A stretch of DNA of 64,000 nucleotides from a virus, in the IMG/VR virus record IMGVR_UViG_3300044981_000029, positions 1-64,000 of that record; one strand, written 5' to 3'. How positions within the stretch are numbered: the first letter of the stretch is position 1; each line of letters starts with the position of its first letter. The position numbers were made by a program, and so were the translations under genes. Below the pieces are notes generated by a model. It was given only the letters and a program-made list of their open reading frames with translations, ran no database searches and was not told the DNA's origin. Shown piece after piece: positions 33,586 through 50,141 of the stretch.

Positions 33586-33611
33586 TGTGGAACCTTTGCC
33601 CCCTACAGGGT

Positions 33612-33678
33612 GAAATCGCGAACGCGCTCGGTGAGGCTCGAACCGGACGCAACATACGAGATCACGATCCGGAAGGTT
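33612..33678 (+). pseudogene. Degenerate copy of the 3' end of the gene at 32385
   Basis: About 80% identical to 32484-32549. After one inserted base the + frame reads LEPDATYEITIRKV, close to LEPDKTYRITIEEV of the 58-aa protein. It lies between the PP-loop gene and the next leftward gene and forms part of the latter's 3' end. It is a footprint of a duplication or insertion at the late/early boundary. Confidence 0.7.
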
Positions 33679-33970
33679 TCGCCTTAGAATAGGCAACGCA
33701 CGCAGCCACGGAATCTCCGCACCAATCAACGGTTCCGTCATGAAGCATCCATTTGCGCCAATATTCTGGCATGCCGTTCAATGGTCTGCATCGAACAGTC
33801 GAAGAACCACCGATGCCTGACGGAGAATAATTCATCTCACCAGTGAAGCCAACAACTTCCCAATCACCGCCATATGATCTGTCCGAGAATTTGTCGCCGA
33901 TGCGGACCATCTGGCGACCTTGACTATAGGCCAATGTCAGTTCTTTGATATCGTCGATAATTCCGCTCAT
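33662..33970 (-). CDS. Hypothetical protein, 102 aa
   Basis: Begins MSGIIDDIKELTLAYSQGRQMVRIGDKFSDRSYGGDWEVVGFTG; small beta-barrel-like composition with Trp and Gly. Its last codons lie in the repeat copy at 33612-33678, so its C-terminus may have been added by the duplication. It overlaps the upstream gene by ATGA. Resembles small phage proteins of unknown function. Confidence 0.6.
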   Translation of the reverse strand: MSGIIDDIKELTLAYSQGRQMVRIGDKFSDRSYGGDWEVVGFTGEMNYSPSGIGGSSTVRCRPLNGMPEYWRKWMLHDGTVDWCGDSVAACVAYSKAKPSGS

Positions 33971-35614: not shown

Positions 35615-36150
35615 GGTTGGTTCTCCGGTGGTTCGGCCCAATCTTCAATTCGTTGCCACATGCGGTTCACCCGCAGGCAGAACTCGGGGTCTTTCTCAAT
35701 GAGACGGGCGATTCTATCGCGAGCGTGAATTATAGACGAATGATCCCGAAAACCAAACCGACGCGCTACAAATGGCGTCGATTGTCCGGTAATTTTCAGG
35801 GCGAGAAACATCGCCAGATGTCGCGCATTGACGATCTTGTCAAATCTTCGCGGGCCATTTATCTCGGCAACCGTCACGCCGTCTTCTTCGGCAATTACGC
35901 GCTGAATTTCCTTGATGATCTCAATTGACGTTTTGCGCGATGGTATCTCGGAAACGACGCTGAACCACCATTTGATTTGCGGTTTCCGAGGTTGTTGACG
36001 CGACGGAGACACGAATGCGGCGCTGCGCTCCGATGCGGACAGAATCTTGATGCCCGGATCTGGTTTCCCAGCAGCATTGATGCGCGCAATCCTCGCTCGG
36101 TGCTCCGCAGTTTGGCGCTTGGCCTCAGTGGTCGGCTGGTCGGGGGTCAT
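35611..36150 (-). CDS. DnaA domain IV-like DNA-binding protein
   Basis: 179 aa. The C-terminal ~90 residues show the DnaA domain IV plan: helices IEIIKEIQRVIAEEDGVTVAEINGPRR, then NARHLAMFLALKITGQSTPFVARRFGFRDHSSIIHARDRIARL, the helix-turn-helix and DnaA signature region that reads DnaA boxes. The AAA+ ATPase and other DnaA domains are absent. The N-terminal half is basic and of unknown fold. It could bind DnaA boxes of phage or host origin and either start phage replication or block host DnaA. Coupled to gcrA. Confidence 0.8.
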   Translation of the reverse strand: MTPDQPTTEAKRQTAEHRARIARINAAGKPDPGIKILSASERSAAFVSPSRQQPRKPQIKWWFSVVSEIPSRKTSIEIIKEIQRVIAEEDGVTVAEINGPRRFDKIVNARHLAMFLALKITGQSTPFVARRFGFRDHSSIIHARDRIARLIEKDPEFCLRVNRMWQRIEDWAEPPENQP

Positions 36151-36614
36151 CAGCGCGACCTCCGAGGCTGCGGCGGCGCATACGAAATCCGGCAATGATG
36201 CGCGCAATAGGGCGATCCAGCAAGCACCCTGCGCCCGCAGAACACATAATCATGACCGCCGAACGGAAACTTGCATGTGTCGTCCGTCAACTCCAGCAGC
36301 GTGATCGGCTGGCAGTCCTCCAGAATCTCAGGCTCCGGCGGCAATGGCTGGCACCGCATGACGGGTTGCGAGCTTTCCTTGAGCAGGAATCCCGCGACCG
36401 GCGCTGCCTTCTTCTTTCGCGGCATTTTCATTCTCTTCGGTGGACCGCCGCCATGGCTGCCTCGCAACCGATAGCCTCGACGATTACACAGGGATATCAC
36501 AGCATTCCGCGATTTTCCATTATTCATGGATATTGCGATCTGAGATGCGGAAAGTCCGCATGCTGCAAGTCTTGCCACCTCGATTTTTTCATCCGCAGTC
36601 CAGAGCACCTGCAT
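36150..36614 (-). CDS. gcrA: GcrA-like cell-cycle transcription regulator
   Basis: 154 aa with ATG at 36614. The N-terminus (WTADEKIEVARLAACGLSASQIAISMNNGKSRNAVISLCNRRGYRLRG) is the GcrA DNA-binding helix-turn-helix. The C-terminal part (CKFPFGG ... FCGRRVLAGSPYCAHHCRISY) is the conserved zinc-like Cys/His end that contacts sigma70. GcrA is an alphaproteobacterial regulator of genes whose promoters carry GANTC methylation sites. A phage copy probably steers host RNA polymerase or host cell cycle. Coupled to a tiny membrane peptide and the DnaA-like gene. Confidence 0.85.
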   Translation of the reverse strand: MQVLWTADEKIEVARLAACGLSASQIAISMNNGKSRNAVISLCNRRGYRLRGSHGGGPPKRMKMPRKKKAAPVAGFLLKESSQPVMRCQPLPPEPEILEDCQPITLLELTDDTCKFPFGGHDYVFCGRRVLAGSPYCAHHCRISYAPPQPRRSR

Positions 36615-36703
36615 CACAGCACACTCCCCAGCAGATACCACCCTGCCCATATCCAAAACGCGATGCACGCGCCGCCCCAGAAGAATGGCCAATTGATTTC
36701 CAT
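36614..36703 (-). CDS. Tiny Trp-rich membrane peptide, 29 aa
   Basis: MEINWPFFWGGACIAFWIWAGWYLLGSVL: a single hydrophobic segment with five Trp. AGGAG lies eight bases before the ATG, inside the end of ninB. The stop overlaps the gcrA start (TGATG). Too short for family assignment, but the start signal is strong. Confidence 0.55.
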   Translation of the reverse strand: MEINWPFFWGGACIAFWIWAGWYLLGSVL

Positions 36704-38640: not shown

Positions 38641-38922
38641 CTACCCCTTCGCCTGTTCGAGCTTCTTCCATGCTCTGGTGAGCGCTGCCATCTCTGGGCT
38701 TGGCGCTACGTCAATATTGTAGCGATGCAGATGGTGGTCGATCATGTTGAGGAGGGCGGTGATTTCTGGCACATGAAGGAAAATTGGTATCGCGGTCATT
38801 TCGCCATAGCGGCGGTCTTTGGACATATTGCAGGCCGTTTCTTGATCTGGATGTAAACCTGGACGGCAATCAATGCATCGCTCGTAACCGAGCACACAGC
38901 CGCAGGCAAGAGTCCGGGTCAT
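38641..38922 (-). CDS. Hypothetical protein with Cys pairs, 93 aa
   Basis: N-terminus CGCVLGYERCIDCRPG with four Cys that may bind zinc, then a helical end (IFLHVPEITALLNMIDHHLHRYNIDVAPSPEMAALTRAWKKLEQ). An internal ATG could produce only the helical part. Coupled to its upstream neighbour by ATGA. Confidence 0.5.
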   Translation of the reverse strand: MTRTLACGCVLGYERCIDCRPGLHPDQETACNMSKDRRYGEMTAIPIFLHVPEITALLNMIDHHLHRYNIDVAPSPEMAALTRAWKKLEQAKG

Positions 38923-39652: not shown

Positions 39653-39684
39653 GTCCATCTCCTGTGAGCCCCATTGGCTAACTC

Positions 39685-39713
39685 CATAAAGCACGGGTTT
39701 GACCTCGTGTCAA
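39685..39713 (-). promoter_or_regulatory. Leftward promoter P1, member of a three-copy promoter family
   Basis: On the minus strand: TTGACA at 39713-39708, 17-base spacer with GTCAAACCC and TGc just before TTTATG at 39690-39685. The same spacer theme (TCAAA, then TG one base before TTTATG) recurs at 43198-43226 and 49941-49969. TG-n-TTTATG is an extended -10. It should drive the block from 39652 to 32572, including erf, the YqaJ gene, gcrA and the dnaA-like gene. Confidence 0.8.
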
Positions 39714-39721
39714 GCCGGGGT

Positions 39722-39898
39722 TTACTGATTAATCTGTAATAGCAACTCCCGAGCGTTCTCGCACGCGTCCTGCAGCGGATCGCCTTCCCATCCATCCGGC
39801 ATGCCATCTCGGAACTCTGAATTGGCCAGCAGAATAGCCTCGATCGCCGCGACGAGAAGCCTCTTCTGGCAATCATTGACTTCGCAATTGTCGGTCAT
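39722..39898 (-). CDS. Hypothetical protein, 58 aa
   Basis: ATG at 39898, overlapping the upstream stop (ATGA). MTDNCEVNDCQKRLLVAAIEAILLANSEFRDG; a helical small protein with two Cys. The upstream neighbour ends at 39895. The region after its stop holds promoter P1. Confidence 0.55.
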   Translation of the reverse strand: MTDNCEVNDCQKRLLVAAIEAILLANSEFRDGMPDGWEGDPLQDACENARELLLQINQ

Positions 39899-40401
39899 TT
39901 GCGGAATTTCCTCTTCGGCCACGGTTGCTTGCGGGTCGCGATTTTGGGACCGCGCTTTGGCTTGCGCTCCAGTCGCGCGAATTTAGTCTTGATGCCAATA
40001 TCGGAACCTTTTGTCGTCACCGTCCGTGCAGCTCCTGGCTTGCGACCGGTGGTCTTTTGCTGGTGATCAGGCTTCGACCGGTAGACCAGAAAGTCCGGGT
40101 GGTGCGCATGCGGAGTGTATCGCGCCGCCACGTCTTTTGCATGCGGGTTGTAGCGGCGTAAAACGAGCGCAGGATCGTGATCGAGCGCATGAGGCGCCAC
40201 ATTCTCGCCGTCCTCGAAGATGCGGGTAAGGAGCCATTTCAGGCGCGTGGCGAGGCTGAGCTTTTTGCCGATCCTGGCACACCTATCAAGAATTGCGGTA
40301 TATTGCAGAACTTCCCAAATCGCGCGCGTCTCTCCGAACTGCCGCTCAGCGACAGCAACCCTAACGGCAAGACCGGGCTGCGGCGGGCGAACGCGCTTCA
40401 T
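39895..40401 (-). CDS. HNH-like small protein of the phage early region, 168 aa
   Basis: The C-terminal half has LDHDPALVLRRYNPHAKD ... PHAHHPDFLVYRSKPDHQQKTTGRKPG ... RPKRGPKIATRK, which resembles the HNH nuclease-type proteins found beside phage replication genes (LDHDPAL, later H). The usual Cys pairs are absent, so it may be degenerate. Highly basic tail. Coupled to the previous gene by TGATG. Nuclease activity is uncertain. Confidence 0.5.
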   Translation of the reverse strand: MKRVRPPQPGLAVRVAVAERQFGETRAIWEVLQYTAILDRCARIGKKLSLATRLKWLLTRIFEDGENVAPHALDHDPALVLRRYNPHAKDVAARYTPHAHHPDFLVYRSKPDHQQKTTGRKPGAARTVTTKGSDIGIKTKFARLERKPKRGPKIATRKQPWPKRKFRK

Positions 40402-40658
40402 CAGCGATACTCTCGCACGTATTTTTTGGCCTCATTCTTCGACATCTTTTCTCCGGTCCAATCATTGATAATTTCACCGTCGATCGCGTCAATCAGTTCG
40501 CACAGGATATCCTTTTGCTCCGGGGTGTCGCGCTGTCCCATGGCAGAAAACGAATAACCGAGGTTAGCCCATCGTTGTACGATCGAAATGCTCTTCTCGC
40601 TGAGGTCGCTCCACCCTTTGAGCGTTCCCCATTTCAGCTCAATGCTTTCGCGCTTCAT
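40401..40658 (-). CDS. Hypothetical protein, 85 aa
   Basis: MKRESIELKWGTLKGWSDLSEKSISIVQRWANLGYSFSAMGQRDTPEQKDILCELIDAID. A recurring small phage protein with a helix pair and Trp-rich N-terminus. ATG overlaps the upstream stop. No function known. Confidence 0.6.
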   Translation of the reverse strand: MKRESIELKWGTLKGWSDLSEKSISIVQRWANLGYSFSAMGQRDTPEQKDILCELIDAIDGEIINDWTGEKMSKNEAKKYVREYR

Positions 40659-40786
40659 TGCGTCACCTTCGGACCATCGTCTGGCCAAGCTTTGAATTCC
40701 GCACCGCATTTCGGACAAGTGCTATCCACCAATTCGGATTTCTTGCCGACCCATCCGCATCTGCACCTGATTTTGATGTCGCTCAT
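40655..40786 (-). CDS. Small zinc-ribbon protein, 43 aa
   Basis: ATG at 40786. CRCGWVGKKSELVDSTCPKCGAEF: two C-x-C/C-x-x-C knuckles typical of a zinc ribbon. A regulatory or RNA-polymerase-interacting role is possible for such phage ribbons but not shown here. Confidence 0.6.
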   Translation of the reverse strand: MSDIKIRCRCGWVGKKSELVDSTCPKCGAEFKAWPDDGPKVTQ

Positions 40787-40787
40787 C

Positions 40788-40901
40788 CTATCCCCCAGAT
40801 TGCCAGCCATGCCGTCCAATGACATCCGCATCACGATCGTTCCGTGCAGATCCAGGGCAGCGGGTGCGGTCAGATGGGAAGGTCAGGATTTTGGCTTGCA
40901 T
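40788..40901 (-). CDS. Hypothetical protein, 37 aa
   Basis: ATG at 40901 overlaps the 3' end of the gene at 40883. MQAKILTFPSDRTRCPGSARNDRDADVIGRHGW. Basic and short; the start has no clear ribosome-binding site. Supported mainly by the tight fit between genes. Confidence 0.4.
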   Translation of the reverse strand: MQAKILTFPSDRTRCPGSARNDRDADVIGRHGWQSGG

Positions 40902-41083
40902 TTCATCGCCTTTCGCAGTTTTCCTCGTTTGGTGGCCGCTTCCTTCACGCGCTCAACCAGCGCCGCGCCGACCTCAGCCCTGTCCCGCGCGCTCGCAGAC
41001 TTGCGGCGGACTTCCTCGGTGGCCAACTTGGCCTCACGCATGGCCTGGAGCGCCTTCTCGCGTGGGCCTATTTCTCGGGGCAT
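40883..41083 (-). CDS. Basic helical protein, 66 aa
   Basis: MPREIGPREKALQAMREAKLATEEVRRKSASARDRAEVGAALVERVKEAATKRGKLRKAMKCKPKS. A single long Lys/Arg/Ala-rich helix, probably binding nucleic acid or a partner protein. Overlaps the upstream gene by 16 bases. Confidence 0.6.
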   Translation of the reverse strand: MPREIGPREKALQAMREAKLATEEVRRKSASARDRAEVGAALVERVKEAATKRGKLRKAMKCKPKS

Positions 41084-41403
41084 GCCTTCACCTTCGCTAG
41101 CAGCGCCTTCGCCGATCGGTACATTTCGCCCTCTGGCGACTGTTCGGCGTCGAGTGTGCGATCATCTCGCTCGACGATATCAGCGTACATTGCCCACTGT
41201 CGCAGGGCTTGATCAAGCGCCTTCACGAGTTCGTCGAAGTGGTTCTCCCAACGGACGATTGCGGCGGCGTTGGCGATGCCTTCAGCCTCATATTCTGGAA
41301 ACTCACAATCGGCGATGATTTCTCCACCAGACAAGACATATCCCGGCCGCTTGGGATTGCGATCAAGTCCGGTCTGCCACGGTCCTTTCGTGCGTTCTCT
41401 CAT
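41068..41403 (-). CDS. Hypothetical protein, 111 aa
   Basis: ATG at 41403 (MRERTKGPWQTGLDRNPKRPGYVLSGGEIIADCEF). This plan (W-x-x-x-x-Y-V ... IADCEF ... A-IA-AAAIVRW) is common in small phage proteins with a conserved Trp-Gly-Ile core, but no function is assigned. The last part is helical (WENHFDELVKALDQALRQWAMYA). Confidence 0.6.
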   Translation of the reverse strand: MRERTKGPWQTGLDRNPKRPGYVLSGGEIIADCEFPEYEAEGIANAAAIVRWENHFDELVKALDQALRQWAMYADIVERDDRTLDAEQSPEGEMYRSAKALLAKVKACPEK

Positions 41404-41558
41404 TCGAGTTCCTCCGCTATTTCCCGCACCAGCTTTTCCCACTGCGTGAGCTTGGCAATTGTGTGATGCGGTGAAATCGGGTCCTGTCCATTCTCCCGAT
41501 TAACTCGCAGGATCGCCAGAAAATCCGCCAACTGCAGCGCAATGTCTCGGTCGCTCAT
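41400..41558 (-). CDS. Hypothetical protein, 52 aa
   Basis: MSDRDIALQLADFLAILRVNRENGQDPISPHHTIAKLTQWEKLVREIAEELE. Mostly helical, acidic. ATG at 41558 overlaps the upstream stop (ATGA); its own stop overlaps the next start. No function recognised. Confidence 0.6.
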   Translation of the reverse strand: MSDRDIALQLADFLAILRVNRENGQDPISPHHTIAKLTQWEKLVREIAEELE

Positions 41559-42001
41559 TTCTGCTCCTTCGCGCCGATCTTGCGGACGACATCCCACGAC
41601 GATAGCCGCAGGGCCTTCAGAAATGGAATGTCCGCGAGGGTCACTGGAATAAGACCATGGCGGACCGTGCACAACCTAGGTTGCACGATCAAGACCGTCA
41701 GTTCATTGTCGCTATAATCATCCGGCCACCCGTCATCGTCGAAGTCCGGGTTCTCGCCGTATTTGGTGAGCGATGCTTCGATTTCTTCTATCGTGGTGTA
41801 TGTTCCATGCGCTCCCGACGTGCTGAACAGAACGAAGTTCATTTCGTTGGCTTCGGCGTGCGGGAACCATTCGTGCAGGGCCTCCATTCCGCGTCCTGGC
41901 TTGATGCTGAAATTGTTGTAATGACCGCCCTGCTTGCCGTGGATGCTCTTGAAGTTAACGTCCTCGGGCTGCTCGAACATTGGTCCACCGAATACGCCCA
42001 T
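41555..42001 (-). CDS. Hypothetical protein, 148 aa
   Basis: ATG at 42001 after AAGGA. MGVFGGPMFEQPEDVNFKSIHGKQGGHYNNFSIKPGRGMEALHEWFPHAEANEMNFVLFSTSGAHGTYTTIEEIEASL. This matches a conserved phage hypothetical family with GTYTTIEEIE in the middle. The rest has DDDGWPDDYSDNELTVLIVQPRL. Function unknown. Confidence 0.65.
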   Translation of the reverse strand: MGVFGGPMFEQPEDVNFKSIHGKQGGHYNNFSIKPGRGMEALHEWFPHAEANEMNFVLFSTSGAHGTYTTIEEIEASLTKYGENPDFDDDGWPDDYSDNELTVLIVQPRLCTVRHGLIPVTLADIPFLKALRLSSWDVVRKIGAKEQK

Positions 42002-42003
42002 TT

Positions 42004-42099
42004 TCAGATCCTTCCGTTGATGGCGAATAGAAGCCCCATAACCCCGAGCGCCGTTGGAATGCACAGCACAACCGTCCAGGCCATCGCGCGACGGGTCAT
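42004..42099 (-). CDS. Tiny membrane peptide, 31 aa
   Basis: MTRRAMAWTVVLCIPTALGVMGLLFAINGRI. Basic start, one hydrophobic segment. Start overlaps the upstream stop (ATGA), which supports translation. No function. Confidence 0.5.
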   Translation of the reverse strand: MTRRAMAWTVVLCIPTALGVMGLLFAINGRI

Positions 42100-42371
42100 G
42101 ATGCAAGCTCCGATACGAAGACAATATTTCCATCGCGTTTCGCCGCATCACGAATCAGCGACCGATATCCCAAGATTTCCTTGATGCGTTCGCGCGGCTC
42201 GGCATGCCGCACATGGATTAGCAGCGAGGTTCCGTCAGTGTAGACGATCTTGTGGAGCTGCAGAAGACGCCCCACGAGCTTCTTGTCGGTGGTGACCTCA
42301 CGGTGGCAAATCCGCTGTTGCGCCGACATGTACCCGGTCCACGTGCCTTCGATGACAAATCGCTCGCTCAT
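42096..42371 (-). CDS. Hypothetical protein, 91 aa
   Basis: ATG at 42371. MSERFVIEGTWTGYMSAQQRICHREVTTDKKLVGRLLQLHKIVYTDGTSLLIHVRHAEPRERIKEILGYRSLIRDA. Recurrent small phage protein with a beta sheet and basic helix. Coupled upstream (ATGA) and downstream. No function assigned. Confidence 0.6.
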   Translation of the reverse strand: MSERFVIEGTWTGYMSAQQRICHREVTTDKKLVGRLLQLHKIVYTDGTSLLIHVRHAEPRERIKEILGYRSLIRDAAKRDGNIVFVSELAS

Positions 42372-42541
42372 GACAACGAATCCTCCTGCCGCAACTCCCG
42401 CAGGAGCGCGTCTATCTGCGGCGCCGTCAGACCTGCATGCGATGCGCAGTCCGCAAACCGCGCCTCGGATATCTCCCCATCCCATAACCCGGCGATGAGC
42501 CGGTCAACCTCGTGGCTGTGCTCGGGATTGATGTGGTTCAT
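42368..42541 (-). CDS. Helical hypothetical protein, 57 aa
   Basis: MNHINPEHSHEVDRLIAGLWDGEISEARFADCASHAGLTAPQIDALLRELRQ. A small all-helical protein with overlaps at both ends; its ATG overlaps the stop of the upstream gene. No family recognised. Confidence 0.55.
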   Translation of the reverse strand: MNHINPEHSHEVDRLIAGLWDGEISEARFADCASHAGLTAPQIDALLRELRQEDSLS

Positions 42542-42768
42542 GGCTGCCTCCCGAATGCGCCGCAGTAGCCTTCTGGCCTGCCGACGTTATCCTTCATTTT
42601 GCGCCATGCCATGCAGGCAGAGGCGATGCACATGCAATCGATGTCCGGCTTACCGCTAGGATTCGCACCGCGGTTGATGGTGGTTCCCTGCCCATCGTTT
42701 TCCGAACTGGCGCGAGCCAATGGGCACCACTTGGTTTTGGCCTCGTCTTCCGTGAGAAAATTGGGCAT
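42538..42768 (-). CDS. Cys-rich hypothetical protein, 76 aa
   Basis: MPNFLTEDEAKTKWCPLARA ... CMCIASACMAWRKM ... EGYCGAFGRQP. The W-C-P ... C-x-x-S-x-C-M-A-W-R layout with conserved Gly/Pro is a recurring small phage family that may bind metal. Function unknown. Confidence 0.6.
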   Translation of the reverse strand: MPNFLTEDEAKTKWCPLARASSENDGQGTTINRGANPSGKPDIDCMCIASACMAWRKMKDNVGRPEGYCGAFGRQP

Positions 42769-42797
42769 GCTATCCTCCTGTTGGGCCGTTGCGAGCG

Positions 42798-43169
42798 TTA
42801 GCGAAGGTTGATTGACGGAACGATCACAGACGGCTTGAACGTCACGCGGTAAAAATATGTGCTCGCTGGCGCCGGGTCCATCTGCTCGGAAAAATACGTC
42901 ACGTTGTCGCTCAATCCGAGGAAATGCTTCTTGAACTGGTTCGGACCAGTTTTGCAGGTCACAGCCAACTTCTTCTCAGATGGCTCCTGCGAGCAAAGGC
43001 CCTCAATCGTCAGCATGTAGTCGCCGGTAATGCCGTTGTAGAACACGATGCGGCGGTTGATTTCAAAATTGTCGGCGGCTTGGGATAGGTTGCTGGATAC
43101 GACGGATGCGTCATTGGAGCAGGCGCCCAATGACGATGCGGTCAAGAGCAGGATTATTGCATGCTTCAT
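42798..43169 (-). CDS. Outer/inner-membrane lipoprotein of the phage beta-sandwich type
   Basis: 123 aa. The signal peptide with lipobox LGAC (Cys17) marks a lipoprotein. The mature part (VASSNLSQAADNFEINRRIVFYNGITGDYMLTIEGLCSQE ... KTGPNQFKKHFLGLSDNVTYFSEQMDPA ... YRVTFKPSVIVP) is the recurrent phage beta-sandwich lipoprotein found in temperate and lytic phages. It is first in the leftward transcript from P2. A superinfection-exclusion role is plausible by analogy to other phage lipoproteins. Confidence 0.75.
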   Translation of the reverse strand: MKHAIILLLTASSLGACSNDASVVSSNLSQAADNFEINRRIVFYNGITGDYMLTIEGLCSQEPSEKKLAVTCKTGPNQFKKHFLGLSDNVTYFSEQMDPAPASTYFYRVTFKPSVIVPSINLR

Positions 43170-43197
43170 TCGGCGGTTTCTCCGTTGCTGATGACCT

Positions 43198-43226
43198 CAT
43201 AAACCACGCATTTGATACCTTGTCAA
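43198..43226 (-). promoter_or_regulatory. Leftward promoter P2, promoter family member
   Basis: On the minus strand: TTGACA at 43226-43221, 17-base spacer containing GTATCAAA and ending TGG, TTTATG at 43203-43198. It matches P1 and P3. It drives the lipoprotein gene and the leftward block. It overlaps the rightward promoter for the regulator gene. Confidence 0.8.
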
Positions 43227-43248
43227 CAGGTGGCTTGCATTTTATTTT
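43220..43248 (+). promoter_or_regulatory. Candidate rightward promoter for the regulator gene
   Basis: TTGTCA at 43220-43225, 17-base spacer, TATTTT at 43243-43248. A second reading uses TTGATA at 43212-43217 with TTGCAT at 43235-43240. The rightward and leftward -35 elements overlap, so the two promoters would compete for polymerase, a typical switch layout. Confidence 0.4.
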
Positions 43249-43268
43249 GGGATGTGCAATCAAGGGCC

Positions 43269-43667
43269 ATGACAGAAACCTATTACAGAAAACTGATCGC
43301 CCCGATAACGCGCCAGAATAAGATGGCGTATCAAGCGCTTGTCCGGGAATTTTCGAAGGTGCTCATCGCCGATTTCGCTGGGGTGAAAAACCAGGGTTTG
43401 AACCGGTGGGAGGTCATCCCGCTGTACTACGTCGAGAACATCTCGAAAAAGACCGGCATCCGGCCGTGTGATCTGCTGCCGGAACCGCCTTGGGGGCTGA
43501 GCTGGACGCTTCCCGATGATGGTTTGGCGGCGACCAAGCGCGCGATTGACGATTTCAAGTTTCGCCGCAACATCGTTGCGCCGATGAACCGCGCCCAGTA
43601 TGCGGACTTTCTGACGGAAAAGAAACGATTCGGCGGCAAACCGCCAAGTTTGGAGATCGCGCGATAA
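43269..43667 (+). CDS. YdaS/Cro-like helix-turn-helix regulator, 132 aa
   Basis: ATG at 43269, after CAAGGG. The segment VLIADFAGVKNQGLNRWEVIPLYYVENISKKTGIRPCDLLPEPPWG follows the YdaS/Cro plan: a helix, 'N-x-x-W' recognition helix, then 'IP' and 'TGI-P-DLLPEP'. It is the first rightward gene after the divergent promoters. It may bind the conserved TCAAA element of the promoter family; that is inference. The C-terminal 60 residues are basic and helical. Confidence 0.65.
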   Translation: MTETYYRKLIAPITRQNKMAYQALVREFSKVLIADFAGVKNQGLNRWEVIPLYYVENISKKTGIRPCDLLPEPPWGLSWTLPDDGLAATKRAIDDFKFRRNIVAPMNRAQYADFLTEKKRFGGKPPSLEIAR

Positions 43668-43682
43668 CCCTAGGAGAAAAAA

Positions 43683-43874
43683 ATGCCTAAGTTACCGACC
43701 ACGCTCTATGCAAAGTCCGAATCTGACGATGGCAATGTGTACTATGTTACGGATACCAATATGTACAATTTGGCTGAAAGTGGTGAAAAGATCCAAATCG
43801 AGAAATATCAACTCATCGAGACCGTCGTCGCCGAAATGGTCGTTTCGACATCGAGACCAACAAAACGAAACTGA
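43683..43874 (+). CDS. Hypothetical protein, 63 aa
   Basis: ATG at 43683 after AGGAGAAA. MPKLPTTLYAKSESDDGNVYYVTDTNMYNLAESGEKIQIEKYQLIETVVAEM. A recurring small beta-rich phage protein. It follows the regulator gene and may be in the same transcript. No function assigned. Confidence 0.65.
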   Translation: MPKLPTTLYAKSESDDGNVYYVTDTNMYNLAESGEKIQIEKYQLIETVVAEMVVSTSRPTKRN

Positions 43875-43932
43875 GATCGCGCGATGATCCTGCCGGGGAG
43901 TGGCCTCCAGCGGCCGGAGGAAGCGCGGTAGT

Positions 43933-43960
43933 GGGGCGAGCCTTTGCGACAGCTCGCCCC
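43933..43960 (+). terminator. Strong GC-rich hairpin, attenuator or terminator candidate
   Basis: GGGGCGAGC, 10-base loop, GCTCGCCCC: a perfect 9-bp stem in the 100-base spacer before the gene at 43983. No T-run follows, so it may be a weak or Rho-assisted terminator, an RNA-processing site or an attenuator limiting expression of the genes beyond. A smaller hairpin precedes it (CCTCC/GGAGG). Confidence 0.45.
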
Positions 43961-43982
43961 GGCTAATTGAGGAGGAATGAGT

Positions 43983-44306
43983 ATGATCGCGATTCTATCG
44001 GATTCCATCCGTACCGCGCGAGCGCCGCACACCTGCGATCAGTGCCTGCATCTCATCCGAAAGGGTGAGCGCTATCGCCGTCAGGTCCATACGGACGATG
44101 GATTTTGCACCTATAAAGCGCACGAGGACTGCGACAGGGCTGCTGCCGAGCTATGGAAGATCGCCGACCTTAACAACGACGAATCGTATATCTTGCATGA
44201 ATACGGCGATGAGGATCGCGCGTTCTTGACTGAGCATTACCCAACAGTTGCTGATAGAATATGGCCACCGGCTAAAGAGGGATTGGATCGTGCCATATCG
44301 AGTTGA
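43983..44306 (+). CDS. Zinc-finger-like hypothetical protein, 107 aa
   Basis: ATG at 43983 after GAGGAGG. TARAPHTCDQCLHLIRKGERYRRQVHTDDGFCTYKAHEDCD has C-x-x-C plus H and C, typical of a small zinc-binding domain. This plan is widespread as a phage hypothetical protein. C-terminal half: DESYILHEYGDEDRAFLTEHYPTVADRIWP. Role unknown. Confidence 0.65.
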   Translation: MIAILSDSIRTARAPHTCDQCLHLIRKGERYRRQVHTDDGFCTYKAHEDCDRAAAELWKIADLNNDESYILHEYGDEDRAFLTEHYPTVADRIWPPAKEGLDRAISS

Positions 44307-44481
44307 CTGCTGGAACTGCGGCGGCGAGGGTGTCATTGACGGCGATTGCACGTGTCAGGAGGACCGCTGCGTCTGCCTGGAACCTGAAGCGCCGCCCTGC
44401 TCGCATTGTCGCGGCAAAGGCTTCATGATCGTCACCGATCTGACGGACGACAACTGCCAAGATGCGGTCTTAATAAGATGA
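44290..44481 (+). CDS. DnaJ-type zinc-ribbon protein, 63 aa
   Basis: GTG at 44290 after AGAGGGA, overlapping the upstream gene. Cys pattern CWNCGGEG ... CTC ... CVC ... CSHCRGKGF resembles the DnaJ Cys-rich repeats (CxxCGGxG and CxxCxGxG). It could bind zinc and act as a small chaperone-like or nucleic-acid-binding protein. It is not a full DnaJ. Confidence 0.6.
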   Translation: MPYRVDCWNCGGEGVIDGDCTCQEDRCVCLEPEAPPCSHCRGKGFMIVTDLTDDNCQDAVLIR

Positions 44482-44511
44482 AACTTCATCCCTCACATGA
44501 GGATTGAGACA

Positions 44512-44808
44512 ATGGTTGAACAAGCTCCAAAAATTGAATCTTTTCGTGGCTCTGGACGTCTCAAATACGATAAATCACGCCGGATAGTTACGTCGGAAAG
44601 AGCCCGACTATCTAACATTGCAGAAAGCTATTCCGTATCTGTCCTACAGCGTCTTGTGGCTAATTACGACACCGATCGTGATCATATCGGCGATAGCGAC
44701 TTGGACAATGAACAACCGATCTCAATCACATTCCGTGGTACACTTGGCGATATCCGCAACGCCCGCACGGCACTCCAGTGTTTTTTGGCGGTAAGAAATG
44801 AGAAGTAA
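44512..44808 (+). CDS. Hypothetical protein, 98 aa
   Basis: ATG at 44512, about 11 bases after GAGG; an upstream ATG at 44497 has no ribosome-binding site. MVEQAPKIESFRGSGRLKYDKSRRIVTSERARLSNIAESYSVSVLQRLVANYD. Helical and strand mixture. Overlaps the next gene. Function unknown. Confidence 0.5.
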   Translation: MVEQAPKIESFRGSGRLKYDKSRRIVTSERARLSNIAESYSVSVLQRLVANYDTDRDHIGDSDLDNEQPISITFRGTLGDIRNARTALQCFLAVRNEK

Positions 44809-45028
44809 ATTTGAGCATCCCACATCTAAAAGTCTGAAGTGGATGACGCCAGAATTTCGCGACTTCCTGCGGCGCAGGACAATGCCGTTTCTCGATAGCG
44901 TTGGCCTTGATCGGCCGATAAGCTTTGTGCTCGAAGAAGTCTACTTGCAAGGCTTGCGCGACGCAACTAAAACCATGGAAAAAACAGATGACACCGAGCG
45001 AAAAGAGCCTGCTTCTTACTGTTGCTAG
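44798..45028 (+). CDS. Hypothetical protein, 76 aa
   Basis: MRSKFEHPTSKSLKWMTPEFRDFLRRRTMPFLDSVGLDRPISFVLEEVYLQGLRDATKTMEK. Overlaps both neighbours. Helical with a Trp-Met motif. Not recognised. Confidence 0.5.
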   Translation: MRSKFEHPTSKSLKWMTPEFRDFLRRRTMPFLDSVGLDRPISFVLEEVYLQGLRDATKTMEKTDDTERKEPASYCC

Positions 45029-45158
45029 GATCTTGCGGGCGCGGATCAAAGAGGTTCGCTTCAGCAAAAATGACGACGATGACATCTGGTCACTTAACGA
45101 GGCGCTCGTACCCTTTGATCCGGTGGGAGAAGACGCCCCTAGCGAGAAACGCAGTTGA
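44988..45158 (+). CDS. Hypothetical protein, 56 aa
   Basis: ATG at 44988 inside the previous gene. MTPSEKSLLLTVARILRARIKEVRFSKNDDDDIWSLNEALVPFDPVGED: helix then acidic loop. The stop overlaps a TTG start (TTGA) of the next short gene. Function unknown. Confidence 0.5.
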   Translation: MTPSEKSLLLTVARILRARIKEVRFSKNDDDDIWSLNEALVPFDPVGEDAPSEKRS

Positions 45159-45259
45159 CCGACGCCCCAGTCGAGATCCGCAACCAGGACGGCTCAATCG
45201 ATGAGGTGATCGCTATCCCGGCCTCGATGACACCGCGAAGGAAACGACATGAGCGCTGA
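45155..45259 (+). CDS. Short protein, possibly a truncated copy of a phage family, 34 aa
   Basis: TTG start overlapping the upstream stop. MTDAPVEIRNQDGSIDEVIAIPASMTPRRKRHER. The first 20 residues match the opening of a longer phage protein with 'EIRN-DGS-DEV'. Here it ends early, overlapping the methyltransferase start by 11 bases. It may be a remnant. Confidence 0.45.
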   Translation: MTDAPVEIRNQDGSIDEVIAIPASMTPRRKRHER

Positions 45260-46472
45260 AACGTTTCTAGACGGCCGGGTCACGATGTTGCTCGGTGACG
45301 TGCGGGAAATGCTGAAAACGCTGCCGGACGATCATTTTGATTGCGTGGTGACCTCGCCGCCGTATTGGGGCTTGAGGTCATATTTGCCGAATGACCATGA
45401 CGATAAACCGCTTGAGATAGGGCTCGAGCCGACGCTCGGTGAACATCTTGCGGTTTTGGTCGCAGTCTTTGCCGAGGTGCGCCGAGTCATGAAGCCTACC
45501 GCAACGCTTTGGCTAAATTACGGCGACTGTTATGCTACGGCGCCGAATGGGCGCAGTGCGGCTGACACCAAAATCTCCGGTAACGACGATCGCACATTTC
45601 GCGACAAACCGTTTTCTACGATTGGGCCGATTGATCGTGGCAAACGCGACTCGGCCCGGTGGGGCGGCGGCAACAATCCTGCCGGCGGTATGCTAAAACC
45701 AAAGGATCTTTGCATGGTCCCCAATCGGCTGGCGATCGCGCTGCAGGATGACGGATGGTTTGTGCGGTCAGAGATCGTGTGGGGAAAAACCAATCCCATG
45801 CCCGATAGTGTGAAAGACCGCCCTGGAACTGCACACGAAAAGATTTTTCTGCTCAGCAAAGCACCGCGCTATCACTACGATGCTGAAGCCGTGCGCTTCA
45901 ACTTGTCCCCGAAGACACTCACGACTTACGGAACTGTCCGCAATGACACGGGCGACGATGGATCTGGAAAGGTGAAAAAGGCTAACTTCGCCAAGTCAAT
46001 TCCGATCCGAGGACCTAGGACGCACCCCGCCGGGAGAATGGACCCTCGCCATGAGGGACACATCAATCACACAGGTATCAACGAAACGCCTCGCGGCGAA
46101 GGGCGCGGTCTGCGCAATTACGAGCCTGCCGCTCTGGAGGTCTGGCCGATGGCTACGCATCCGTTTGGTGAGGCCCACTTCGCGACCTTCCCGCCCGAAC
46201 TCGCGTTGCGCTGCCTGAAGGCTGGCTGCCCTCCCCGCGGAAAGGTCCTTGACCCGTTCGGTGGCGCTGGAACTGTAAGCATGGTTGCTGCTTTAAACGG
46301 GCTGGCGTCTACCCTGATCGAGTTAAACGAGGAATCCGCTATCATCGCTCGCGCCCGCATCGAAGCCGCGTTTATGGGCCGTGAGGAGGGCGCCCGGCAC
46401 ATGACCAAGCAACTCGGGCGGTTGGCAGCCGATGCCGGCCCGCTGTTCGCCAATCCCGAGGCCGCCGAATGA
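45249..46472 (+). CDS. DNA methyltransferase, N4-cytosine / N6-adenine type
   Basis: 407 aa. The catalytic motif TSPPYW (residues 35-40) comes first, and the AdoMet-binding motif LDPFGGAGT (about 335-342) last, the beta-class order of the N6_N4_Mtase family. A middle GWFVRSEIVWGKTNPMPDSVKDRPGTAHEKIFLLSKAPRYHYD block is also typical. No restriction enzyme gene is adjacent, so it is an orphan methylase, probably protecting phage DNA or altering host methylation. Specificity cannot be read. Confidence 0.85.
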   Translation: MSAETFLDGRVTMLLGDVREMLKTLPDDHFDCVVTSPPYWGLRSYLPNDHDDKPLEIGLEPTLGEHLAVLVAVFAEVRRVMKPTATLWLNYGDCYATAPNGRSAADTKISGNDDRTFRDKPFSTIGPIDRGKRDSARWGGGNNPAGGMLKPKDLCMVPNRLAIALQDDGWFVRSEIVWGKTNPMPDSVKDRPGTAHEKIFLLSKAPRYHYDAEAVRFNLSPKTLTTYGTVRNDTGDDGSGKVKKANFAKSIPIRGPRTHPAGRMDPRHEGHINHTGINETPRGEGRGLRNYEPAALEVWPMATHPFGEAHFATFPPELALRCLKAGCPPRGKVLDPFGGAGTVSMVAALNGLASTLIELNEESAIIARARIEAAFMGREEGARHMTKQLGRLAADAGPLFANPEAAE

Positions 46473-46576
46473 CCCGCGCCCTGATCCTGCGGTGGTCTCC
46501 CGCGAATCCCTACTGGTGGGGCGTGCAGTTCGCCCTGGTCGGCTACCACATGCGGTACAATGCCGTGAGGTATTGA
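46469..46576 (+). CDS. Hypothetical protein, 35 aa
   Basis: ATG overlaps the methylase stop by ATGA. MTRALILRWSPANPYWWGVQFALVGYHMRYNAVRY. Short, Trp/Tyr-rich, weakly hydrophobic. Supported by the overlap only. Confidence 0.4.
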   Translation: MTRALILRWSPANPYWWGVQFALVGYHMRYNAVRY

Positions 46577-46614
46577 GGCCTTGACGCGGGCGCGGTTGGA
46601 GGCGTAAAAAGTGC

Positions 46615-46644
46615 GGGCCGGCACAGTGTCTAGCTGCCCGGCCC
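46615..46644 (+). other. Hairpin in the 209-base gap before the DUF1376 gene
   Basis: GGGCCGG, 16-base loop, CCGGCCC; no T-run. The gap 46577-46785 otherwise holds a possible minus-strand reading frame from 46717 (TTG start after GGGG) whose first ~48 codons look coding, then continues antisense to the methylase. I do not accept it as a gene. Confidence 0.3.
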
Positions 46645-46785
46645 TGATCTCGAATGCGTGCGGCGCTTCGGATCGTTTGGAAGTCTTGTATTTACGGTTA
46701 TCCGCTTCGACCGTCAAGACCCCAGATTAAATCCCCCTCTCCGCATCGGTTCCTGATCATGACATTTTTGTTGTGAAGGACGCGC

Positions 46786-47121
46786 ATGAAACGACCCTGG
46801 ATGGCTCTCTATGTCGGCGATTATTTGGCCAATACGGGACACCTGACTACCGAGGAACACGGCGCCTATTTCCTCCTGATCATGCATTATTGGGTTCACG
46901 AATCGCTTCCGAAAGATTCAAAATCCCTTTCCGTTTTGGCGCGGGTTTCTCTGAAAAGGTGGAACGGGATAGAAACCAAACTTCAACCCCTCTTCGGCCC
47001 GAATTGGACACACCACAGACTGGACCAAGAGATTGACAAGGCAAACGAAATTAGCACGAAGCGGGCTTCCGCTGGATACCTCGGGGGGAAAGCAAATGGT
47101 AAAGCATACGGGAAGCATTAG
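46786..47121 (+). CDS. DUF1376 replication-associated protein
   Basis: 111 aa. ATG after AAGGA. The start (RPWMALYVGDYLANTGHLTTEEHGAYFLLIMHYWVHESLP) is the DUF1376 signature found in phage replication regions, usually followed by a Lys/Asn/Ser-rich tail. Here the tail is short (GGKANGKAYGKH), so the protein may be truncated; the frame continues without a stop for 39 codons after TAG at 47121. It lies just upstream of the helicase. Confidence 0.75.
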   Translation: MKRPWMALYVGDYLANTGHLTTEEHGAYFLLIMHYWVHESLPKDSKSLSVLARVSLKRWNGIETKLQPLFGPNWTHHRLDQEIDKANEISTKRASAGYLGGKANGKAYGKH

Positions 47122-47237
47122 CTTCGATTTTGCATAGCCGTTTGCCGACATATGGTTGTGGTTGTGACTGTGAGTGTGACAAGAGGCTACCAAAGGAAAG
47201 ATAGTAAGAGTTCATCCTATGACTGTAGGGACCGATC

Positions 47238-48743
47238 ATGATTTCCGAACTGCGACCGTACCAACTCCAAGCTCTCGACGATATCCGCGCATCTGTTCGG
47301 GGTGGCGTACGGCGCCTCGTGGTGCAGGCTGCGACCGGCGCCGGTAAGACGAAACTCGCCGCCGCTATCGTTGAGGGCTGCCGCGAGAAGGGCAACCGGG
47401 TGGCCTTCGTATGCCCGGCAATCGACCTCATCGACCAGACCGTGGAAAGCTTCTACGCGGAGGGCGTCCGCGGCATGGGGGTGATACAGGCCAGCCACAC
47501 CATGACGGATTGGTCTCAGCCGGTCCAGATTTGTTCCATTCAGACGATCCAGGCGCGCGGCGCGTTTCCCGAGGCCAAGACCGTGATGTTCGACGAATGC
47601 CACCGGCTGCACGAGGCGCACAAAAAATGGTTGGCGCATCCAGATTGGCAGACTGTGCCCTTCATCGGGCTCAGCGCCACGCCATGGACGAGAGGGCTAG
47701 GCAAGTACTTTGATAGCCTCTTGATCGCAGCGACGACTGCCGATCTGATTGAGCAGGGGTATCTCTCCAAGTTCCGCGTGTTCGCCACTGGGCATCCCGA
47801 TTTGTCTGGCGTGAAAACCGTTGCTGGCGACTACCACGAGGGCGAGCTGAGCAACGCGATGCAGGAAGGCGCGCTCACTGCGGATATCATCAGGACGTGG
47901 CAGGAAAAGTGGGGCAAGCCCAAGACCCTGTGCTTCGGGGTCGATAAAGCGCATGCAAAATCAATCCAAGAGCGTTTCATTCACGCCGGCATCAACTGCG
48001 GCTATCAGGATGCGGAGACGACGCAAGACGAGCGCAAGGACATCAAACGTAAGTTTCACAACGGGGAATATCCCGTTGTGTCGAACATCCAGACATTGAC
48101 AACGGGCGTGGACTGGGATGTTAGATGCTTGATCCTGGCGCGTCCGACGCGATCGGAGATGCTATTCGTACAGATCATCGGACGCGCCCTGCGAACGGCC
48201 GAGGGGAAAGACGAAGCATTGATACTTGATCATTCGGACACGACGCAACGTCTCGGTTTTGTCACTGATATCACGCACGAGCATCTCGACGACGGAAAGC
48301 CAAAGCCGAAGAAGGCTGCCGAAGAAAAGAAAAAGCCACTCCCCCGCGAATGCGAGCAGTGCGCCGCTCTGTTGCCGCGTGGAACAAAGATTTGCCCGAA
48401 CTGTCAGCATCAAATCACGATCACGTCTTCAATTATGGAGCAGGACGGCGAGTTGGTCGAACTGACGCCTGGGAAAAAATCCAAAGCCAAATCACGCCAC
48501 GAGTTCACCGAACCGGAGCAGCGCCAGTTCTTTGCCGAACTGAAAGCGCACGCGATCATGAAGGGATACAAAACCGGCTGGGCTGCGAATCAGTACCGCG
48601 AGAAGTTCAAATCATGGCCGCCTCGATATTTCGATAACGTTGAGCCGGCCAAGGTTCTTTCTCCCACGGTAGCTCTTTGGATACGATCAAGGCAGATCGC
48701 GTTTGCAATGGCTAAGAAGAACGCAGAGAAGGAGAACGCATGA
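47238..48743 (+). CDS. DEAD/DEAH-box (SSL2-like) DNA helicase
   Basis: 501 aa. Walker A ATGAGKTK (residues 32-39), motif II DECH (119-122), a SAT-type motif (GLSATPWTRG) and C-terminal motifs V/VI (TTGVDWDVRCLI, IGRALRTAEGK) mark a superfamily 2 helicase. About residues 370-390 hold a C4 zinc knuckle (CEQC ... CPNC). Without a phage polymerase gene, this is the main recognisable replication motor. A spacer of 116 bases (47122-47237) separates it from DUF1376. Confidence 0.85.
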   Translation: MISELRPYQLQALDDIRASVRGGVRRLVVQAATGAGKTKLAAAIVEGCREKGNRVAFVCPAIDLIDQTVESFYAEGVRGMGVIQASHTMTDWSQPVQICSIQTIQARGAFPEAKTVMFDECHRLHEAHKKWLAHPDWQTVPFIGLSATPWTRGLGKYFDSLLIAATTADLIEQGYLSKFRVFATGHPDLSGVKTVAGDYHEGELSNAMQEGALTADIIRTWQEKWGKPKTLCFGVDKAHAKSIQERFIHAGINCGYQDAETTQDERKDIKRKFHNGEYPVVSNIQTLTTGVDWDVRCLILARPTRSEMLFVQIIGRALRTAEGKDEALILDHSDTTQRLGFVTDITHEHLDDGKPKPKKAAEEKKKPLPRECEQCAALLPRGTKICPNCQHQITITSSIMEQDGELVELTPGKKSKAKSRHEFTEPEQRQFFAELKAHAIMKGYKTGWAANQYREKFKSWPPRYFDNVEPAKVLSPTVALWIRSRQIAFAMAKKNAEKENA

Positions 48744-48976
48744 GCGAGTGTTCGCACCGTGAATTTCTTCTTGCGGCATTACGAATTGCAAGCGCGCGAG
48801 CTAAGTTATTCGACTACGAGGTAACATCGATTGGAATCGCTTTGCGAGATGATATGATAACTAATGAGCAAGCCGTTAAGTGGATGAAGGATATCGGGGC
48901 TGTTGAGGTGATACCCGATGAGGTTTCCAAGGCTACAGGCCACGAATCGCAATCATATGGGAACGAAGGATCCTGA
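48740..48976 (+). CDS. Hypothetical protein, 78 aa
   Basis: ATG overlaps the helicase stop (ATGA). MSECSHREFLLAALRIASARAKLFDYEVTSIGIALRDDMITNEQAVKWMKDIGAVEVIPDEVSK. A recurring phage protein with a helical start and strand-rich middle. Function unknown, but coupled to the helicase. Confidence 0.6.
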   Translation: MSECSHREFLLAALRIASARAKLFDYEVTSIGIALRDDMITNEQAVKWMKDIGAVEVIPDEVSKATGHESQSYGNEGS

Positions 48977-48979
48977 GAG

Positions 48980-49249
48980 ATGACGACTTCAAAATCTCCC
49001 ATTAGCTTGCTCAAGGCGCAAGCCGATAAAGTAGCAGCCACGCTCAAGGCAGCCGAGCGCGGGGAGAAAATGGGAACCGTAGACCGATCAAAAGAAGATA
49101 TCACATTCGGGATTGTGATGAATGACAAGACTATAAAAATAACGATGCCTTGGGAGTTGATTCGTAAATACAGCGAGGCGACTATTTCTGAATACATTGT
49201 TGGGAAAATGCGCGGTAACATCTGGCTTGCATCCACGGATCAGCGATGA
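48980..49249 (+). CDS. Hypothetical protein, 89 aa
   Basis: MTTSKSPISLLKAQADKVAATLKAAERGEKMGTVDRSKEDITFGIVMNDKTIKITMPWELIRKYSEATISEYIVGKMRG. Helix, then a beta hairpin and a helix. This plan recurs in phages as an unknown protein. Its stop overlaps a possible upstream start of the next gene. Confidence 0.55.
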   Translation: MTTSKSPISLLKAQADKVAATLKAAERGEKMGTVDRSKEDITFGIVMNDKTIKITMPWELIRKYSEATISEYIVGKMRGNIWLASTDQR

Positions 49250-49299
49250 CTAATCGGCCATGGGATGCTGCCGCTGGAACAATCAGGAAAGGAAATCCG

Positions 49300-49668
49300 A
49301 TGAGTGAGCACACGCCGACGCCATGGACATATCGGCCCCACGAACACGACGACTGGGGTTTTATCCGAGGTCCGAAAGATCCGATTGAAAAAGGGTGGCC
49401 CTTGGTGGCCATCGCTCGGAGCGGTAGATTTGAGGATCTTGACGAACATCGTATGAATAGCACCGATCCGTATGCGGCCAATGGTGCCTTGATCGTCCGA
49501 GCCGTCAACGCGTACGCTGACCTCGTACAAGCGCTGGAGTTGGCGCGGCGGTTCATTGACCCCACCTGCGATCCGCCCAGGCTGAACAACCGAGACATGT
49601 GCGAGATGATCCGCGCCGCCCTTGCCAAGGCCAAGGCACTGGAACAACCGGTAGGAGCGGGGGAATGA
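49300..49668 (+). CDS. Hypothetical protein (MSEHTPTPW family), 122 aa
   Basis: ATG at 49300 chosen: AGGAAAGGA lies upstream and MSEHTPTPW is the recurrent start of this phage family. An ATG at 49246 in the same frame overlaps the upstream stop (ATGA) and cannot be excluded. The end is helical (NGALIVRAVNAYADLVQALELARRF ... MIRAALAKAKALEQ). Function unknown. Confidence 0.65.
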   Translation: MSEHTPTPWTYRPHEHDDWGFIRGPKDPIEKGWPLVAIARSGRFEDLDEHRMNSTDPYAANGALIVRAVNAYADLVQALELARRFIDPTCDPPRLNNRDMCEMIRAALAKAKALEQPVGAGE

Positions 49669-49868
49669 TCAAGGCGCCGTGGACATCGAAGCAGGTAGAC
49701 AGCCTAAACCAATTTCAGCATTCCGGCATGATGCACCCGTTTACCTGCCCTGGCCACGATGGTGACGGCGATCGCCATTTGGTCGCGACTCGCGCGGGGT
49801 GGATCTGTTGTCATTGCGATTATAAGCAGGATTGGGCGCACGATTGGATGTGCGCATTTCAGCCATGA
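49665..49868 (+). CDS. Small zinc-binding-like phage protein, 67 aa
   Basis: ATG at 49665 overlaps the upstream stop. FTCPGHDGDGDRHLVATRAGWICCHCDYKQDWAHDWMCAFQP: C-P-x-H and C-C-x-C with W-A-H-x-W-M-C, a common conserved phage protein likely binding zinc. No function assigned. Confidence 0.65.
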   Translation: MIKAPWTSKQVDSLNQFQHSGMMHPFTCPGHDGDGDRHLVATRAGWICCHCDYKQDWAHDWMCAFQP

Positions 49869-49940
49869 CGGGAGGCGGCGCGATGAAAGCCGCTGGCCAT
49901 CGCCCGCACATTTTACCCGCGATAAATCGTAAACCCCGTC

Positions 49941-49969
49941 TTGACACAGTATCAAACCCATGCTTTATG
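49941..49969 (+). promoter_or_regulatory. Rightward promoter P3, promoter family member
   Basis: TTGACA at 49941-49946, 17-base spacer with GTATCAAACCC, TGc just before TTTATG at 49964-49969. It matches P1 and P2 in both the core hexamers and the spacer theme. It drives the block from 49995 rightward. Confidence 0.8.
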
Positions 49970-49994: not shown

Positions 49995-50141
49995 ATGACC
50001 CTCAGCAACCTGATCGCAGCCTACGCCGCCGCCAAGACCGAGCGCAACGTCCTCGCCATCGGCCGGTTCATTCGCCGCAACCCGGCTTACATCCCGACGA
50101 AGGCAGAGCGCAAGCAGCTTCGCGCATGGCGGATGATCTGA
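49995..50141 (+). CDS. Basic hypothetical protein, 48 aa
   Basis: ATG at 49995, nine bases after GGAG. MTLSNLIAAYAAAKTERNVLAIGRFIRRNPAYIPTKAERKQLRAWRMI. Helical, basic. First gene after promoter P3. Its stop overlaps the next ATG (TGATG). Confidence 0.6.
   Translation: MTLSNLIAAYAAAKTERNVLAIGRFIRRNPAYIPTKAERKQLRAWRMI

What the first reader, a model, noticed from the sequence alone, without database searches (positions are those of the whole stretch)
39685..49969. One conserved promoter sequence used three times, in two orientations
Three places share TTGACA, a 17-bp spacer with TCAAA five bases after TTGACA and TG one base before the -10, then TTTATG: 39713-39685 (minus), 43226-43198 (minus) and 49941-49969 (plus). 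Identity extends beyond the core hexamers into the spacer (GTATCAAA in two copies, GTCAAA in the third; CCC before nTGC in two). The spacer match suggests a shared binding protein as well as sigma70-type recognition. They lie at the starts of the two leftward blocks and one rightward block, so they could form one early regulon.
Basis: partly seen in the sequence, partly recalled or inferred. Interest (0 to 1): 0.75.

Follow-up and report, generated by a model that had tools for sequence, protein, structure and literature searches.

The report
Repeated phage promoter with shared operator
The three sites are real copies of one promoter design that a group of uncultured phages, probably infecting Rhizobiales bacteria, repeats several times per genome; it carries a fixed upstream element that looks like a regulator's binding site and, often, a small RNA hairpin just before the gene start.

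Summary
In detail: TTGACA-N17-TTTATG with TG one base before the -10 occurs exactly three times in the 70,194-base record, at the stated places; shuffles give none. It is more than three look-alikes. In related phages the same promoter recurs, up to five times per genome, and its fixed parts are GTAAAC-N6-TTGAC-N15-TG-n-nATAAn, often followed by a 5-bp hairpin (GAGCC-N5-GGCTC) next to the Shine-Dalgarno and ATG. Of 31 sites chosen by hairpin and TTGAC-N15-TG alone, 31 have GTAAAC at the same spacing. GTAAAC plus the -35 form an imperfect 17-bp inverted repeat GTMAAC-N5-GTTGAC, perfect in some phages, which also lies in front of the Cro/YdaS-like regulator gene in 13 of 17 regulator loci examined. 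I infer that this regulator binds over the -35. GcrA is encoded, but no GANTC lies at the sites. Sites 1 and 3 are internal to their blocks. Expression, binding and hosts are untested.

The parts
39685..39725 (-). Site 1: GTAAAC (39725-39720), TTGACA (39713-39708), TG (39693-39692), -10 TTTATG (39690-39685)
   Evidence: matrix trained without the window scores it 25.0 bits, the best in the genome; orthologues G004 34333+, G041 2077+, G047
39667..39679 (-). Leader hairpin of site 1, AGCC-AATGG-GGCT, just before AGGAG (39663-39659) and ATG (39658 or 39652)
   Evidence: same hairpin at the orthologues (GAGCCATTGGGGCTC)
43198..43238 (-). Site 2: GCAAGC (43238-43233), TTGACA (43226-43221), -10 TTTATG (43203-43198); leftward promoter divergent from the regulator gene
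   Evidence: 22.8 bits; 17-bp inverted repeat 10 of 12
49929..49969 (+). Site 3: GTAAAC (49929-49934), TTGACA (49941-49946), TG (49961-49962), -10 TTTATG (49964-49969); ATG at 49995
   Evidence: 23.6 bits; orthologue G004 24862-24822 minus, positional counterpart G046 18859+
43212..43226 (.). 15-bp palindrome TTGACAAGGTATCAA overlapping the -35 boxes of the leftward promoter and of the regulator's own candidate promoter; counterparts at 39699-39713 and 49941-49955
   Evidence: TTGA-N7-TCAA occurs at only 4 places in the genome, 3 of them these promoters
43220..43248 (+). Candidate rightward promoter of the regulator, TTGTCA-N17-TATTTT
   Evidence: consensus match only; the number of such matches in the region equals chance
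43269..43667 (+). Cro/YdaS-like helix-turn-helix regulator, 132 aa; candidate operator-binding protein
   Evidence: related 65-80 aa proteins match YdaS/Cro/HTH models below cut-off; model resembles P22 c2, 434 Cro, SinR at Foldseek probability up to 0.99 but no E-value below 0.05
36150..36692 (-). Phage-encoded GcrA homologue, downstream of site 1; no evidence that it acts on these sites
   Evidence: PF07750, 78 bits against a cut-off of 26.9; no GANTC at the sites

Best explanation
The three sites are this phage's copies of a promoter cassette conserved in a group of phages that probably infect Rhizobiales. Each is an extended -10 sigma70-type promoter with a fixed 17-bp spacer, read by host RNA polymerase (inferred). 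GTAAAC, always 6 bases before TTGAC, together with the -35 forms a 17-bp inverted repeat (GTMAAC-N5-GTTGAC). I infer that a dimer of the phage's Cro/YdaS-like protein (here 43269-43667) binds there and covers the -35, shutting down the non-structural promoters and its own gene once enough has been made, as lambda Cro does; the records examined have no tyrosine-integrase hit, so there is no sign of a lysogenic side. In many copies the transcript would start just before a small hairpin followed by the Shine-Dalgarno, which probably protects the 5' end of the mRNA or keeps the ribosome site open. In this phage the operator may have shifted: the upstream repeat is weakened and all three promoters carry a 15-bp TTGA-N7-TCAA palindrome over the -35 and spacer. 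Shown by sequence: the cassette, its spacing, its recurrence, its link to gene starts, and the repeat in front of the regulator. Inferred: transcription, timing, the identity of the binding protein, repression rather than activation, and hairpin function.
For: Exactly three copies, 0 in shuffles. Matrix from 46 cassettes of other phages recovers only these three (25.0/23.6/22.8 bits; next 10.7; reversed genome 11.0; best of 20 shuffles 16.3). Cassette scan over 3.3 Mb: 64 distinct hits against 4 in the reversed control. Independent selection: 31 of 31 hairpin + TTGAC-N15-TG sites carry GTAAAC (at least 5 of 6) at exactly -12, chance 0.5% each. Logo of 48 cassettes: GT(A/C)AAC, TTGAC and TG nearly invariant, spacing fixed (TTGAC and TG were required by the selection). 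IMG/VR scans find multi-copy contigs. Inverted repeat: 33 of 48 have 5 or 6 of 6 symmetric pairs, against at most 4 of 6 for a direct repeat; perfect GTCAAC-N5-GTTGAC copies recur in three contigs. The repeat at 10 of 12 or better lies within 110 bp of the regulator start in 13 of 17 loci, with a copy at -28/-29, -34/-35 or -47 in all 13, P about 0.006-0.019 each. Regulator is HTH. Leader hairpin: stem kept in 98.7% of cells, one compensatory C-G to A-U change in two sequences. No integrase hit (PF00589) in 15 records.
Against: The phages are related, so counts are not independent events. The repeat in front of the regulator partly IS the leftward cassette, so it does not prove that the regulator binds it. 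In this window the upstream repeat is weak (CTTGAC at sites 1 and 3; GCAAGC at site 2), yet GTAAAC is still kept at sites 1 and 3, which suggests it may be read on its own, for instance by an activator. TTTATG is a poor -10 by the E. coli consensus, and the standard sigma70 scan did not list these sites. Hairpin covariation is thin, and sites 2 and 3 lack the hairpin. One cassette phage has no detected regulator in its record (G041, a fragment).
Confidence: 0.6

Rival explanations
1. The upstream GTAAAC is a host activator site: an OmpR-family response regulator such as CtrA, which binds TTAA-N7-TTAA over the -35 of promoters and is known to control some alphaproteobacterial phages.
For: TAAA-N7-TTGA has the same 11-base period and position as a CtrA site; CtrA sites in phage promoters are documented (PMC9437464); the group's nearest cellular TerL hits are in Rhizobiales.
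Against: 0 of 48 cassettes contain TTAA-N7-TTAA. Inverted-repeat symmetry is better than direct-repeat identity, and the A to C change seen in three contigs makes the inverted repeat perfect.
Confidence: 0.12
2. Plain strong extended -10 promoters, homogenised by duplication inside each genome; GTAAAC is a proximal alpha-CTD contact and no dedicated regulator is involved.
For: Spacer similarity is high within the window (0.57-0.64 against 0.34 between genomes), as expected of duplicated promoters; the promoter alone explains TTGAC and TG.
Against: A sequence-exact hexamer at one fixed distance, kept while spacers turned over, is not how A-tract UP elements look; perfect palindromic versions exist.
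Confidence: 0.2
3. The spacer palindrome TTGA-N7-TCAA alone is the shared operator in this phage, and the upstream element is a relic.
For: Only 4 TTGA-N7-TCAA places in the genome and 3 are these promoters; 14-16 bp palindromes of similar form sit on the -35 next to the regulator in G003, G005, G007, G054, G055 and G028.
Against: Absent at the orthologous sites 1 and 3 in G004 and at site 1 in G041 and G047; in the divergent region such palindromes can arise from two face-to-face -35 boxes; GTAAAC is still perfect at sites 1 and 3.
Confidence: 0.25

Closest known systems
[quoted passage not shown]
   Same: Short motif repeated in the non-structural half, a few bases before start codons, about half with upstream 17-bp inverted repeats thought to bind a DNA-binding protein
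   Different: SAS is GGGATAGGAGCCC and contains the Shine-Dalgarno; in the passages read, the ESAS repeat pair was not tied to a promoter. Here an explicit extended -10 promoter overlaps the repeat and precedes a true RNA hairpin, in unrelated phages
Cro of lambdoid phages (lambda, P22, 434)
   Same: Small HTH protein divergent from a leftward promoter, 15-17 bp operator over the -35 boxes
   Different: No CI partner was identified and no integrase hit; the same operator type is spread over many promoters along the genome; the protein family has only sub-threshold matches to Cro/YdaS models
Operators and stoperators of Cluster A mycobacteriophages (L5, Bxb1; PMC6550527)
   Same: One phage repressor, many sites across the genome, site consensus drifting between phages, a site in front of the repressor gene
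   Different: Stoperators are 13-14 bp, asymmetric, bound by a monomer and mostly not at promoters; here most copies are promoters and symmetric
CtrA sites in alphaproteobacterial phages (PMC9437464)
   Same: Repeated regulator sites at promoters of phages of the same host class, similar geometry over the -35
   Different: No TTAA-N7-TTAA in any of 48 cassettes

Membership tests
sigma70 extended -10 promoter | TGn directly upstream of the -10 and TTGAC -35 at 17 bp | tested here: met
   in the hairpin-selected set 31 of 49 sites have TTGAC-N15-TG
sigma70 extended -10 promoter | Transcription starts 6-8 bases downstream of the -10 | not testable with these tools
   needs 5'-end mapping
Lambda-type Cro regulon | Small HTH regulator of the Cro/CI fold | tested here: inconclusive
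   HTH fold by model and weak family hits; no curated cut-off of a Cro or YdaS model passed
Lambda-type Cro regulon | Palindromic operator at the regulator's own promoter and at the promoters it controls | tested here: met
   (sequence only)
Lambda-type Cro regulon | Protein binds those operators and represses | not testable with these tools
   needs gel shift and reporter
CtrA regulon | TTAA-N7-TTAA over the promoter | tested here: not met
   0 of 48 cassettes
GcrA/GANTC-controlled promoter | GANTC at the promoter | tested here: not met
   none at the three sites; 8 of 48 cassettes have one within an 80-base stretch
SAS of Cluster K mycobacteriophages | 13-bp GGGATAGGAGCCC before the start codon | tested here: not met
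   the motif here is GAGCC-N5-GGCTC followed by a separate Shine-Dalgarno

The most novel reading that the evidence does not exclude
A group of environmental phages without an integrase runs its non-structural genes through a portable start module (operator + extended -10 promoter + 5'-terminal hairpin + Shine-Dalgarno) scattered over both directions, all tuned by one Cro-like protein without a CI partner, with operator symmetry drifting between phages in step with the regulator.
Probability: 0.3. Interest if true: 0.65.

Novelty: new variant of a known kind. Interest (0 to 1): 0.5.

Why it matters
It gives an uncultured phage group a concrete, testable map of its non-structural promoters and a named candidate regulator. 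It also shows that a promoter, its operator and a leader hairpin are kept together as a reusable unit, comparable to the still unexplained SAS/ESAS of mycobacteriophages but with an explicit promoter in it.

Tried and rejected
TTGACA-N14-TG-N-TTTATG with 2 mismatches over 40 relatives: mostly chance hits, but it gave the first orthologue. CtrA site and GANTC/GcrA as the shared factor: tested, not met. Cassette in bacterial genomes: none with the hairpin pattern in GTDB contigs; one hairpin-less copy in a 67-kb contig binned as Rhizobiales (L159). Cassette in annotated phages: no meaningful match, none in MW202675 (1-40000), one weak match (13.2 bits) in Paracoccus phage Pkon1. Rfam on the window and three relative loci: only tRNAs in one relative. 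Idea that each cassette is bidirectional: discarded on inspection of one typical copy, since its complement strand has no -35 at 17 bp. Literature searches for such a promoter found no report; the library is open-access only.

Full report
Check. The three sites are exactly as written and are the only TTGACA-N16..18-TTTATG matches in the 70,194-base record to which the window belongs. Shuffled sequence gives none. A standard sigma70 scan does not list them, because TTTATG does not fit its -10 rule.

Relatives. The large terminase (57129-58808) has relatives of 40-83% identity in IMG/VR and, in bacterial genome collections, mostly in Rhizobiales, at 51% or less; a Rhizobiales host is therefore an inference. 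The closest early-region relative, G004 (80% in the terminase), is syntenic. At the places of sites 1 and 3 it has GTAAACCACCAGTTGACTTGATCCCTGATCCGTGGTTGATAGG and GTAAACCACTAGTTGACTTATCCCAAAACATATGGTTTATGG. Kept: GTAAACC, TTGAC, TG, a related -10, and downstream letters. Not kept: TCAAA in the spacer. G041 and G047 agree.

The cassette. Searching relatives for the leader letters of site 1 showed that the same unit recurs within genomes: GTAAAC-N6-TTGACn-N14-TGn-nATAAn, usually 7-14 bases, then GAGCC-N5-GGCTC, then GGAG and ATG. G005 has five copies, G003 three with the full promoter, G054 four, and others two to four. Over 3.3 Mb the scan gave 64 distinct hits against 4 in reversed sequence. 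The strongest test is independent selection: sites picked by the hairpin, a Shine-Dalgarno and TTGAC-N15-TG, without looking at the upstream element, carried GTAAAC (at least 5 of 6) at the exact spacing in 31 of 31 cases. Whole-collection scans with the promoter, with the promoter plus hairpin, and with the perfect-palindrome form found multi-copy contigs; scan 36 also returned unrelated single matches in AT-rich contigs. So the three sites are the complete set for this phage at that level.

What the upstream element is. GTAAAC and GTTGAC are near reverse complements, 5 bases apart: a 17-bp inverted repeat. Of 48 cassettes 33 have 5 or 6 of 6 symmetric pairs, while direct-repeat identity never exceeds 4 of 6. 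In three contigs the half is GTCAAC in several copies, giving perfect repeats. The same repeat sits in front of a small HTH gene divergent from the leftward block in 13 of 17 regulator loci examined, at one of a few set distances. In the four others, whose regulators are the most distant, it is weak (8-9 of 12). The regulator family matches YdaS, P22 Cro and HTH_3 models below their cut-offs, and the window protein's model resembles P22 c2, 434 Cro and SinR without a significant E-value. This supports, but does not prove, that it is the binding protein.

This phage. At sites 1 and 3 the base before TTGAC is C, and at site 2 the upstream half is GCAAGC, so the 17-bp repeat is weakened. Instead all three have TTGA-N7-TCAA, a 15-bp palindrome found at only one other place in the genome (13801, in the structural region). 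Its regulator is longer (132 aa) and 22-38% identical to the others. An operator shift in step with the regulator is a reasonable reading, but spacer similarity from duplication explains it too.

Leader hairpin. The stem pairs in 98.7% of cells over 15 distinct sequences, with one compensatory change. It begins 7-9 bases after the -10 in 21 of 31 cases, that is, close to the expected mRNA 5' end. Where sequence lies between promoter and gene (L131 6271/6456; L138 4373/4256), the hairpin stays with the gene start. A role in mRNA protection or ribosome access is inferred. In the window only site 1 has it, in a four-pair form.

Limits. Nothing here shows transcription, timing or binding. Counts come from related phages. 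The collections hold fragments, so missing genes are not proof of absence. The no-lysogeny remark rests on the absence of PF00589 hits in 15 records only.

Noticed in passing
window 39679-39667 (-); many relatives (G003, G005, L102, L138, L158): A 5-bp hairpin GAGCC-N5-GGCTC directly before the Shine-Dalgarno of non-structural genes, repeated several times per genome; GAGAC-N5-GTCTC in G052.
   Followed up: partly
L131 6271 and 6456; L138 4373 and 4256: Promoter and hairpin of one cassette are separated by about 100-200 bases; the hairpin stays with the downstream gene start.
   Followed up: no
window 36150-36692 (-) and 45249-46472 (+): The phage encodes a GcrA homologue and a DNA methyltransferase; GANTC is under-represented in the genome (169 against about 264 expected from base composition).
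   Followed up: partly
window 42798-43169 (-): First gene after site 2 matches PF25682 (Phage_VG64, 175 bits) and begins with a signal peptide and lipobox-like LGAC: a likely lipoprotein, perhaps acting at the cell surface early in infection.
   Followed up: no
L102 15489-19811 (-): A relative carries 18 tRNA genes in about 4.3 kb.
   Followed up: no
window 33920-33934 and 38700-38714: Two further TTGRC-N5-GYCAA palindromes (TTGACTATAGGCCAA, TTGGCGCTACGTCAA) without a recognised promoter.
   Followed up: no
window 32755-33741 (-): Phosphoadenosine phosphosulfate reductase-like gene at the far end of the leftward block.
   Followed up: no
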